Made by a program: the position numbers and the translations under genes. From NCBI GenBank assembly GCA_024278035.1, contig JAJRUA010000217.1, positions 1-12,745 on the forward strand: a stretch of DNA of 12,745 nucleotides, written 5' to 3'. Below, piece after piece: positions 11,486 to 12,745 of the stretch (the first letter of the stretch is position 1; the number at the start of each line of letters is the position of its first letter). The stretch is from Planctomycetota bacterium. Its GTDB lineage: Bacteria; Planctomycetota; Planctomycetia; Pirellulales; Lacipirellulaceae. Below the pieces are notes generated by a model that was not told where the DNA came from, did not search any database, and worked only from the letters and a program-made list of their open reading frames with translations.

Positions 11486-11700
11486 CCTGTAATGTCGGTT
11501 CTTCACCAGCAACGCCACTGAAACTTTCGAGCAAATCTTACAAAGGAGCTTGGTAAAGTTTACAACGGACGAGGACGTGAAGCGGTAATAAGCCCCAAAG
11601 AGAGCCATTATTAGCAATCTAGCGATGACTCCTTCCGATTGGCACGGGGCGTGCATCTCTCTACGGATGGTAGAAGAGTTGGGTTCGTCCTAAGAGCCCA

Positions 11701-11908
11701 TCCCAAAACTTTCACAGGAAGTCTCGAAAGACTACGAGAACGCCAAGCGGTTTTGGGACGTGCAAAATAAGAGTGCTTCCGGATGGCGGGACCCAGTGTC
11801 ATCCGCGTTGCCTTTTGTTCGAACCACCTGAGACAAGCCTTCGGAACCCCGAAAGGAGTTCCTCCCTCCGCAAATCGGGCCGTCGAGTTTCCCGCAACTC
11901 GGCGGCCC
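11701..11908 (+). ncRNA. Candidate structured RNA (five hairpins), no known family
   Basis: Five hairpins lie within 210 bases. P1 pairs 11701-11709 with 11750-11758 (TCCCAAAAC/GTTTTGGGA) and encloses P2, AGTCT-CGAA-AGACT (11720-11733). P3 is 11780-11788 with 11797-11805. P4 is 11843-11862, closed by a GAAA tetraloop with one C-A mismatch. P5 is 11877-11889 with 11896-11908, 13 pairs around a 6-base loop. P3 and P5 use G-U pairs and P4 has a GNRA loop only when read as + strand RNA, which sets the strand. No RNase P, tmRNA, SRP or 6S signature was found. No clear promoter or U-run terminator is visible. It could instead be a dispersed palindromic element. The overlapping long - strand open frame (11611-12177) is not considered coding. 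Confidence 0.4.
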
Positions 11909-12047
11909 CTCTTCTGCGCCATCCTTATCTTTCTGCACGCCCAAAACCTTGAGGCACCCCGATCGCTGGGACAGATAAAGATCAGAATTCGATACCCGAC
12001 CGATTTCAAAAAACAACGAAAGTGAGAAAAACACTTGTGGAGAAGAG

Positions 12048-12089
12048 CGCGCCCGGCAGGATTCGAACCTGCAACCCCTGGTTTCGAAG
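12048..12089 (-). pseudogene. tRNA-Arg 3'-half fragment (attachment-site remnant)
   Basis: Read on the - strand this is a canonical tRNA 3' half: anticodon loop CTTCGAA (anticodon TCG, Arg; 12083-12089), 3' anticodon stem ACCAG, 5-base variable loop, T-arm GCAGG-TTCGAAT-CCTGC (perfect), acceptor strand CGGGCGC and discriminator G. CCA is not encoded. The 5' side fails: no GCGCCCG acceptor partner, and the bases before the loop (CAGGC) do not pair with ACCAG. The break at the anticodon loop is typical of tyrosine-integrase att cores. In that reading the element lies at higher coordinates and the original chromosome at lower ones. Confidence 0.75.
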
Positions 12090-12147
12090 GCCTGAGCTGC
12101 AAATCTAGACGCTCGCGACCGACTCTCCCGAACTCTTGAGTATTTCT

Positions 12148-12250
12148 CGACTTACTTAACGACAGCAAGAATTTCAACTTGCCAACAATGTCTATATTCT
12201 ACAGGTTTTTGGACGGTTCGTCACCAATTCTGTACCGGATTCTGTACCAG
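12148..12250. repeat. Element-end repeat, copy 1
   Basis: This starts CGACTTAC, then TAACGAC, ACTTGCC (12177-12183), TCTACAGG-TTTT and CACCAATTCTGTACC, and ends in two ATTCTGTACC boxes 12 bases apart (12227-12236, 12239-12248). A second, diverged copy with the same order lies at 12403-12506. ACTTGCC begins 88 bases after the tRNA-Arg anticodon loop. Confidence 0.65.
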
Positions 12251-12271
12251 AACAGGAACGCTGGTCTTTCG

Positions 12272-12289
12272 GGTACAGAATTCTGAACC
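12272..12289. repeat. Inverted box pair GGTACAGAATTCTGAACC
   Basis: This 18-bp near-perfect palindrome (one mismatched pair) is built from the same ATTCTGTACC box in inverted orientation, overlapping a one-base variant on the other strand. It lies 23 bp after the two direct boxes of copy 1. It looks like a protein-binding site. Confidence 0.55.
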
Positions 12290-12302
12290 AAGTGCATTGT
12301 CT

Positions 12303-12343
12303 CGCTCTTCGGGCGGTTGAACCCCCGACCAAGGAATTATGAG
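12303..12343 (-). pseudogene. tRNA-Met/Ile-like 3'-half fragment
   Basis: On the - strand: anticodon loop CTCATAA (anticodon CAT; 12337-12343), 3' anticodon stem TTCCT, variable loop TGGTC, T-arm start GGGGG-TTCAACC. The T-arm closes poorly (GCCCG gives three of five pairs), so it is decayed. The 5' half is absent: the bases before the loop (GCGGC) do not pair with TTCCT. As with the Arg fragment, similarity begins at the anticodon loop. CAT cannot distinguish Met from lysidine-Ile. Confidence 0.55.
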
Positions 12344-12402
12344 GCCGCTCCACCCGGTCATGGCTGCCCAACTCTCAACGGAGACAACCTGTTTAGGTGT
12401 AA

Positions 12403-12506
12403 CGACTTACGCCTCGATAGCTAACGACTTCGACTTGCCGTTAATTCCCAAATTATACAGGGTTTTCAATAGATTACCACCGATTCTGTACCGGATTCTG
12501 TACCCA
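12403..12506. repeat. Element-end repeat, copy 2
   Basis: Same order as copy 1: CGACTTAC, TAACGAC, ACTTGCC (12433-12439), TTATACAGG-TTTT, TTACCACCGATTCTGTACC, with ATTCTGTACC boxes at 12483-12492 and 12495-12504, again 12 bases apart. ACTTGCC begins 90 bases after the CAT anticodon loop, nearly the spacing seen in the Arg module. Confidence 0.65.
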
Positions 12507-12548
12507 GAATAGAGCAGGGAACTCTTGGGGGATGTCCCATCCATTGTT

Positions 12549-12568
12549 AAAACGTGGTCTCACGTTTT
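12549..12568 (-). terminator. Possible bidirectional terminator hairpin
   Basis: AAAACGTG and CACGTTTT pair perfectly around a 4-base loop, 30 bp after the stop of the partial transposase-like frame on the - strand. The U-run is formed only by the stem's own four T, so termination strength is doubtful. Confidence 0.35.
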
Positions 12569-12578
12569 CGCCAGCGTA

Positions 12579-12590
12579 GCGTAGCTACGC
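12579..12590. repeat. 12-bp palindrome GCGTAGCTACGC
   Basis: This perfect palindrome follows a partial repeat of GCGTAGC, between the AAAACGTG hairpin and the 21-bp hairpin. It forms part of a cluster of three palindromes in about 100 bp beside the transposase-like end, perhaps the terminal region of an insertion sequence. Confidence 0.5.
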
Positions 12591-12597
12591 GCGTCGA

Positions 12598-12745
12598 TCA
12601 ACTTGGCATCGTCTCCTTTGCCGTAGGCAAAGGAGACGATGCCAAGGCTTTCTCTTCCTCCTCCGGTTCCTTCTTCGGTCGCTCAAGAGCCGCTACGAGG
12701 TTCGGCAAGTCCTGGTAACCTGAGATTCGGCGGAACCCTTTCTCC
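12598..12745 (-). CDS. C-terminal end of a transposase-like protein (partial)
   Basis: An open frame enters from the right edge and ends at TGA (12600-12598), giving the last 48 residues. They begin EKGFRRISGYQDLPNLVAAL, a pattern I associate with C-termini of DDE transposases (F-R-I-GY-DLP-L-AL). A Lys/Glu/Pro-rich tail (ERPKKEPEEEEKAL) follows. The family (for example IS256 or IS4) cannot be set from this piece. The final 16 codons are largely made of a 21-bp perfect hairpin. The gene sits just inside the putative element boundary formed by the tRNA fragments, as expected for mobile DNA. Real coding sequence: fairly likely. Transposase: moderate. Confidence 0.45.
   Translation of the reverse strand, partial: EKGFRRISGYQDLPNLVAALERPKKEPEEEEKALASSPLPTAKETMPS
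12602..12646. repeat. 21-bp perfect inverted repeat with 3-base loop
   Basis: The arms at 12602-12622 and 12626-12646 are exact reverse complements (CTTGGCATCGTCTCC... with its mirror) around GTA. It is far longer than chance allows and lies inside the end of the partial transposase-like frame. There is no U-run, so a terminator is not the obvious role. Confidence 0.85.

What the first reader, a model, noticed from the sequence alone, without database searches (positions are those of the whole stretch)
12048..12506. Two modules, each a different tRNA 3' half plus the same distal repeat
An Arg(TCG) 3' half and a CAT-anticodon 3' half, both broken at the anticodon loop, lie 254 bp apart in the same orientation. 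Each is followed after 88 or 90 bp by a shared repeat ending in two ATTCTGTACC boxes. One remnant att site is ordinary; two with different tRNAs and identical architecture are not. Possibilities: successive integration of related elements, or one element with a modular attachment region able to use several tRNA genes. The modules being one system is inference.
Basis: partly seen in the sequence, partly recalled or inferred. Interest (0 to 1): 0.72.

Follow-up and report, generated by a model that had tools for sequence, protein, structure and literature searches.

The report
Two stacked island attachment scars
The feature is two left-end docking scars of related mobile DNA islands lying side by side, one from a tRNA-Arg gene and an older one from a tRNA-Met gene, which suggests that such islands can be stacked or re-addressed while keeping a trace of an earlier address.

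Summary
Window 12048-12504 carries two modules: a tRNA 3' half broken at the anticodon loop (Arg-TCG, then worn Met-CAT), a left arm, and a pair of ATTCTGTACC boxes. In related planctomycete genomes the same module is the left end (attL) of integrative elements of a tyrosine-integrase family whose other end has an intact tRNA and the integrase gene. Core-to-box distance is 137-140 bp in 12 of 14 box-bearing left ends. In four elements picked for visible boxes, both ends share the box; seven further elements show no such match. In the host family nearest the window, a five-member integrase clade splits between tRNA-Met(CAT) and tRNA-Arg(TCG), the window's two tRNAs. Best explanation: successive integration of sister elements with loss of the DNA between. 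A system built to use several tRNAs is unlikely: 2 of 38 left ends examined are doubled (the window and, weakly, G541). The contig ends at 12745, so integrase, right end and activity cannot be tested. New variant of a known kind (tandem accretion at tRNA att sites).

The parts
12048..12089 (-). Outer module A: tRNA-Arg(TCG) 3' half, broken at the anticodon loop; attL core
   Evidence: 100% identical over its 42 bases to a half in G542
12090..12226 (+). Left arm A (137 bp from core end to box pair)
   Evidence: -137; -137 to -140 in 12 of 14 box-bearing left ends
12227..12248 (+). Box pair A, ATTCTGTACC-GG-ATTCTGTACC, proposed arm-type sites
   Evidence: role by comparison
12271..12289 (.). Extra boxes, one inverted (12272) and one direct with 1 mismatch (12280), 13 bp from the Met half
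   Evidence: inverted boxes near a pair also in L027, L065 and L074
12303..12343 (-). Inner module B: worn tRNA-Met(CAT) 3' half; anticodon-arm core 17/18, outer part decayed
   Evidence: no Rfam tRNA hit
12344..12482 (+). Left arm B (139 bp)
12483..12504 (+). Box pair B, identical to pair A
12173..12248 (+). Distal repeat copy A (75% identical to 12429-12504)
12429..12504 (+). Distal repeat copy B
11987..11996 (+). Tentative degenerate box (ATTCGATACC, 2 mismatches) 51 bp left of the Arg half, where a right-arm box would sit; weak, since boxes with up to 2 mismatches occur by chance (12 found, 6.7 expected in the window)
   Evidence: 11982-11999 is 89% complementary to 12269-12286
12598..12744 (-). 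Truncated reading frame (48 aa, runs off the contig), perhaps the first cargo gene of the element to the right
   Evidence: family not searched

Best explanation
Each module is the left attachment end (attL) of an integrative element of one planctomycete tyrosine-integrase family. The integrase recombines in the anticodon loop of a tRNA gene. The element brings its own copy of the tRNA 3' half, so the tRNA is rebuilt at the right end (next to the integrase gene) and the chromosome's own 3' half is pushed to the left end, followed by a 138-bp arm and a pair of boxes that probably bind the integrase. The window shows two such left ends in a row: an intact-looking outer one made in tRNA-Arg(TCG) and an older-looking inner one made in tRNA-Met(CAT). 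They most likely arose by successive integration (accretion) of two sister elements with later loss of nearly everything between them, or by replacement of an old integration module by a new one placed outside it. Shown by comparison: att identity, geometry, integrase at the other end in relatives, tandem arrays in relatives, the Arg/Met split of an integrase clade. Inferred: order of events, loss of the outer element's cargo, binding of the boxes.
For: Same module in relatives: L026, L027; L166, L167; L272, tRNA-Met half; G541. Core-to-box distance 137-140 bp in 12 of 14 left ends, 10 of 12 without the window. Integrase beside right-end boxes with Pfam Phage_integrase in 3 of 3 tested. Intact tRNA in 20 of 30 fetched integrase loci (of 40 matches) of one family, 17 of them Arg, and in 29 of 30 fetched loci (of 32 matches) of the window's nearest family. 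Box pairs with a 1-2 bp gap lie within 400 bp of an intact tRNA in 43 of 91 loci, with other gaps in 2 of 29. A direct-repeat pair of any sequence is seen in 25 of 51 right arms. Left and right boxes match within four elements picked for visible boxes. Tandem junctions: G320, G566, 7 of 25 Bacteroidota left ends. Met(CAT)/Arg(TCG) sister integrases, clade 100/96.
Against: No integrase and no right end in the window (contig end). Box matching is not general: of 11 elements with both ends at hand, the own right arm is strictly the best partner in 3, tied in 1 (G566) and not best in 7; those 7 show no clear shared box and may belong to other integrases. 26 of 51 right arms show no direct-repeat pair, 3 of the 5 in the Met/Arg clade among them. 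The DNA between pair A and the Met half lacks the CGTAAGT motif of 25 of 51 right arms, though only 1 of 5 in the Met/Arg clade has it. Six relatives have no tRNA next to the same ABC-transporter genes, so the original tRNA site was not confirmed by synteny. Boxes of B are unchanged although its tRNA half is worn, which a simply dead fossil would not predict.
Confidence: 0.72

Rival explanations
1. Integration-module replacement (re-addressing): a newer integrase plus att module was placed just outside the older left end of the same island, which now moves with the Arg address and carries the Met address as a relic. (A special form of the best explanation.)
For: G541 shows the same layout: a perfect outer Arg(CCG) half whose boxes match the island's present integrase end, and a worn Ala(CGC) half further in, followed by a box pair of another type 322 bp from the outer pair. 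In the window too the outer half is fresh and the inner worn.
Against: Only two cases; the Ala half in G541 is weak (score 19 against shuffle maximum 18) and its core-to-box distance is 165, not 138. Simple tandem accretion followed by deletion gives the same picture.
Confidence: 0.3
2. One element with a modular left end built to use several tRNA genes: modules A and B are alternative working att sites of the same integrase.
For: Both modules keep identical boxes and the core-to-box distance; B keeps its anticodon-arm core (17/18) and boxes while its tRNA 3' end decays, as if core and boxes were still needed. A and B arms are each other's closest.
Against: 2 of 38 distinct left ends show a second half. 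The arms differ at 45% of compared positions. Integrases beside Met and beside Arg form separate groups within their clade (93/92 and 88/81).
Confidence: 0.1
3. A self-splicing group I intron splits the tRNAs at the anticodon loop.
For: Such an intron does appear to split tRNA-Met in a relative (G556, L316; Intron_gpI 45.3 bits, E 1.6e-10, under the cut-off of 50).
Against: No group I intron hit in 11700-12745 up to E 5, and the two halves belong to different tRNAs.
Confidence: 0.01
4. Chance resemblance, with no att function.
For: The CAT half gives no Rfam tRNA hit.
Against:: outside all shuffles made there, and the same anatomy recurs in other genomes.
Confidence: 0.01

Closest known systems
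tRNA-directed genomic islands as mapped by Islander (PMC4383910; passages read)
   Same: tRNA fragment plus rebuilt tRNA marking the island ends; crossover at the anticodon loop is one of the sublocations named there (2083 of 3919 islands); tandem arrays known (125)
   Different: Two different tRNAs within 255 bp and no cargo between; Islander pairs each fragment with its cognate tRNA and rejects candidates under 2 kb
CIME / ICE accretion model (PMC5704250; passages read)
   Same: A decayed element keeps att sites, a new one integrates beside it, giving stacked att sites
   Different: The passages describe stacking at one target gene; here the stacked sites come from two different tRNA genes
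ICECleSHZ29-like ICEs (PMC12561888; passages read)
   Same: Similar backbone, two tRNA targets (Met-CAT and Glu-TTC), attributed there to integrase differences
   Different: Each copy has a single address in the passages read; insertion there is said to be at the tRNA 3' end with a 17-bp repeat, not at the anticodon loop
NBU1 / IntN1-type elements of Bacteroidota (recalled; seen only through PMC6764341 passages)
   Same: Tyrosine integrases acting next to tRNA genes
   Different: No sequence test against IntN1 was made here

Membership tests
tRNA-directed tyrosine-integrase genomic island | displaced tRNA 3' fragment ending at a known crossover sublocation | tested here: met
   many other halves in the family stop near the same place
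tRNA-directed tyrosine-integrase genomic island | intact cognate tRNA at the far end in the correct orientation | not testable with these tools
   window ends at 12745; no whole genome held; met in relatives
tRNA-directed tyrosine-integrase genomic island | integrase gene between fragment and tRNA | not testable with these tools
   none seen in the window; met in relatives
tRNA-directed tyrosine-integrase genomic island | arm-type sites shared by both ends of one element | tested here: inconclusive
   clear in 3, tied in 1, not seen in 7 of 11 relatives with both ends; only left ends visible in the window
CIME (cis-mobilizable element) | attL and attR kept, integration and transfer genes lost | tested here: inconclusive
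   12090-12302 has a left arm and boxes but no recognisable right-arm motif
group I intron in tRNA | Intron_gpI between the two halves of one tRNA | tested here: not met
   likely positive example in a relative
left end of the planctomycete element family described here | core-to-box-pair distance 137-140 bp and a 12-bp box period | tested here: met
   winA -137, winB -139; pairs at 12227/12239 and 12483/12495

The most novel reading that the evidence does not exclude
Islands of this family change their tRNA address by adding a new integrase and attachment module outside the old left end, and keep earlier addresses as a readable stack inside the island. Module B, whose core and boxes are preserved while its tRNA 3' end has decayed, may still serve as an alternative left end, so that one integrase could excise two nested versions of the island.
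Probability: 0.25. Interest if true: 0.65.

Novelty: new variant of a known kind. Interest (0 to 1): 0.45.

Why it matters
Changes of target by tRNA-directed integrases are usually inferred from trees. Stacked left ends with different tRNAs would record such a change in the DNA itself. The fixed 138-bp arm also gives a simple way to find left ends of these islands in planctomycetes. That the same 10-bp box serves a different-looking integrase at tRNA-Met in marine Bacteroidota is unexpected and testable.

Tried and rejected
Group I intron, chance match and recent duplication of one module were considered; the first two were rejected by Rfam, shuffles and recurrence, the third made unlikely by 55% arm identity. 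The viral-contig hit L001 is a coding chance match in a phage-like contig with no tRNA in the stretch held. Exact box pairs are rare in the phylum (3 of 392 genomes), so an integrase survey replaced a pattern survey. Synteny of the ABC-transporter flank in six relatives showed no tRNA beside it, so the original site stays unproven. Left ends of the elements in G543, G526 and G571 were not found within about 98 kb; a Met left end in G571 lies about 378 kb away and faces the wrong way, perhaps a rearrangement. Box matching between ends was first run on four elements picked because boxes were visible; widened to 11 elements it held strictly in 3, tied in 1 and failed in 7, so it is no longer offered as general and my confidence went from 0.75 to 0.72. 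Of the second control set (27 further stretches), L316 proved to be an intron-split gene and was dropped (26 left); L318, L332 and L333 match a tRNA at only 81-85% and may not be left ends; only 4 of the 27 show a box pair on the left side, so the set tests only the second-half question. In one search three left ends had under 300 bp of right flank. Papers: the box sequence was searched in the held library: 50 papers hold either string, 10 were listed and are unrelated by title, the other 40 were not seen, so nothing firm is claimed about print. Further paper searches: (listings only, apart from the four papers cited with passages).

Full report
What is there. The window (12,745 bp) has no complete tRNA and no held genome. 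At its right end lie two modules. Module A: tRNA-Arg(TCG) 3' half 12048-12089, arm, box pair 12227-12248. Module B: tRNA-Met(CAT) 3' half 12303-12343, arm, box pair 12483-12504. The box is ATTCTGTACC; each pair has a 2-bp gap, i.e. a 12-bp period. The 76-bp distal repeat is 57/76 identical (maximum 43 in 100 dinucleotide shuffles); two pairs are found where 0.00 are expected. Extra boxes lie at 12272 (inverted) and 12280 (1 mismatch).

Are the tRNA halves real? Against a library of tRNAs from fetched loci, half A scores 42 and half B 27; 500 base shuffles of each give at most 18 and 21. The best matches of B are the tRNA-Met(CAT) genes of L211 and L216, then that of L060, all beside integrases of this family. 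Rfam's tRNA model does not list B up to E 5, which is against it as a tRNA but expected for a worn half. The 18-nt anticodon-arm part is 18/18 in A and 17/18 in B, the rest 23/25 and 14/25 ungapped.

What the module is. All 120 were examined. With a gap of 1 or 2 bp, 43 of 91 loci lie within 400 bp of an intact tRNA; with other gaps 2 of 29 do, and these two (L025, L060) are planctomycete loci too. Planctomycete loci show two main kinds of place: next to intact tRNA 3' ends, with an integrase beginning beside the boxes in L050, L060, L065 and L075 (right ends), and beyond tRNA halves broken at the anticodon loop in L026 and L027 (left ends, as in the window). Some of the 16 loci first looked at fit neither (L016, L039, L074), and L066 and L025 have the boxes the other way round. 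Three integrases tested carry Pfam Phage_integrase.

Both ends of one element. In G320 (8.9-Mb contig) an intact tRNA-Arg(TCG) with boxes and integrase lies 52 kb from a tRNA-Arg half with arm and boxes; a second integrase abuts that half, a tandem array. In G541 a 58-kb element lies between tRNA-Arg(CCG) and a 54-bp identical fragment. In four elements picked for visible boxes (G541, G320, G558 contig 7, G566), with four different boxes, the longest word shared by left and right arm is the box, and the true pairing scores best of 24 permutations. In G558 and G566 the right end used is at a neighbouring half of a tandem array, and the G558 left arm has one box only. When seven more elements with both ends were added, the own right arm was strictly best in 3 of 11, tied in 1 and not best in 7. 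In right arms, a direct-repeat pair of any sequence was found in 25 of 51. So the boxes behave as arm-type sites where they can be seen, but many elements at the same tRNAs lack a recognisable pair.

Geometry. The distance from the end of the anticodon-arm core to the box pair is 137-140 bp in 12 of 14 box-bearing left ends, including A (137) and B (139); exceptions are L031 (not found in the range searched) and the inner module of G541 (165). One of the 12, L117, holds a tRNA that ARAGORN calls complete. In L108, L139 and L056, as in B, the core is kept (16, 14, 16 and 17 of 18; shuffle maxima 13, 13, 14, 13) while the rest of the tRNA half is worn. This would fit retention of what the integrase needs; it was not tested.

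Why Arg and Met. The nearest held genomes to the window, by identity of an ABC-transporter protein, are G503 (71%), G526 (66%) and G488 (63%), each over the best-matching stretch. In the family of G503, 16 of 43 genomes have an integrase match, and 29 of 30 fetched loci contain an intact tRNA. In a tree of 42 integrases of at least 300 aa with a neighbouring tRNA, a clade with support 100/96 holds five integrases, all from that family: two at tRNA-Met(CAT), three at tRNA-Arg(TCG). The third Met integrase (L060) lies elsewhere, 13 of 38 inner branches are open, and several rows are long. Only 2 of these five right arms (L211, L212) show the ATTCTGTACC pair. Getting two different tRNA cores next to each other still needs an extra step (recombination between unlike cores, rearrangement, or module replacement), which was not observed directly.

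How unusual is the double. One search scanned 13 box-bearing left ends and 29 entries; 38 are distinct after removing three repeats and one intron-split gene. A second tRNA half above the shuffle maximum of its call was found in the window (24) and in G541 (18 against 16); the best of the others was 15. In G541 the outer Arg(CCG) half is perfect and its boxes match the present integrase end. The inner one is a worn tRNA-Ala(CGC) half (score 19; 0 of 500 shuffles, maximum 18), followed by a box pair of the ATTCTGTACC type found independently. It is weaker evidence than the window's and its spacing is off (165 bp; a short tandem repeat lies in the arm).

Bacteroidota. All 72 loci with a 1-bp gap bear titles that I read as Bacteroidota. 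Of these, 33 lie within 400 bp of an intact tRNA (31 Met(CAT), 2 Leu), and 25 have a T-loop motif 132-135 bp before the boxes. In 20 of 25 left ends given to (23 of those 25 plus two triple-box loci) a 443-445-aa reading frame begins 44-60 bp inside the boxes (190 bp in two); the other five loci have under 1 kb there. One such protein was tested: Arm-DNA-bind_5, Phage_int_SAM_5 and Phage_integrase. None of the left-end frames matches the planctomycete integrase by phmmer at 1e-2, but one frame near a Bacteroidota right end does (L096, E 4.1e-15; 1 of 23 Bacteroidota right-end loci). In 7 of the 25 left ends, right-type boxes precede the half: tandem junctions with the boxes-half-arm-boxes layout of window 12227-12504. 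Why unlike integrases share a box is open; the scan selected for the box, which inflates this impression.

Limits. The ABC-transporter flank gave no tRNA in six relatives. Calling the boxes arm-type sites rests on position and on the match between ends in the elements where boxes are visible, not on binding data.

Noticed in passing
L316 (G556:C1:338000-339800), 653-937: tRNA-Met split at the anticodon loop by 285 bp that match the group I intron model (45.3 bits, E 1.6e-10, under the cut-off of 50). Lone tRNA-Met 5' parts in L322, L323, L324 may be similar cases; L322 and L323 gave no hit at the gathering score.
   Followed up: partly
L002-L121, 72 loci with a 1-bp box gap: Marine Bacteroidota elements at tRNA-Met(CAT) use the same 10-bp box, with an integrase at the left end that phmmer does not relate to the planctomycete one.
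   Followed up: partly
L066, L114, L025: Box pairs downstream of intact tRNA-Arg(TCG) or tRNA-Lys in the opposite orientation to the other right ends.
   Followed up: no
G571:C1:2694370 and 2683594: Two tRNA-Met halves 10.8 kb apart, far from the intact tRNA-Met at 3072094 and facing the wrong way for it; suggests rearrangement.
   Followed up: no
G546:C96:39319, 47777, 54322: tRNA-Arg(CCG) 3' half, a near full-length gene match and a 5' part on one contig.
   Followed up: no
L089: Ten further box-like words at an 18-bp period beside the box pair, of unknown nature.
   Followed up: no
window 12602-12646: Perfect 21-bp inverted repeat with a 3-bp loop within the end of a truncated reading frame, terminator-like or a repeat.
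   Followed up: no
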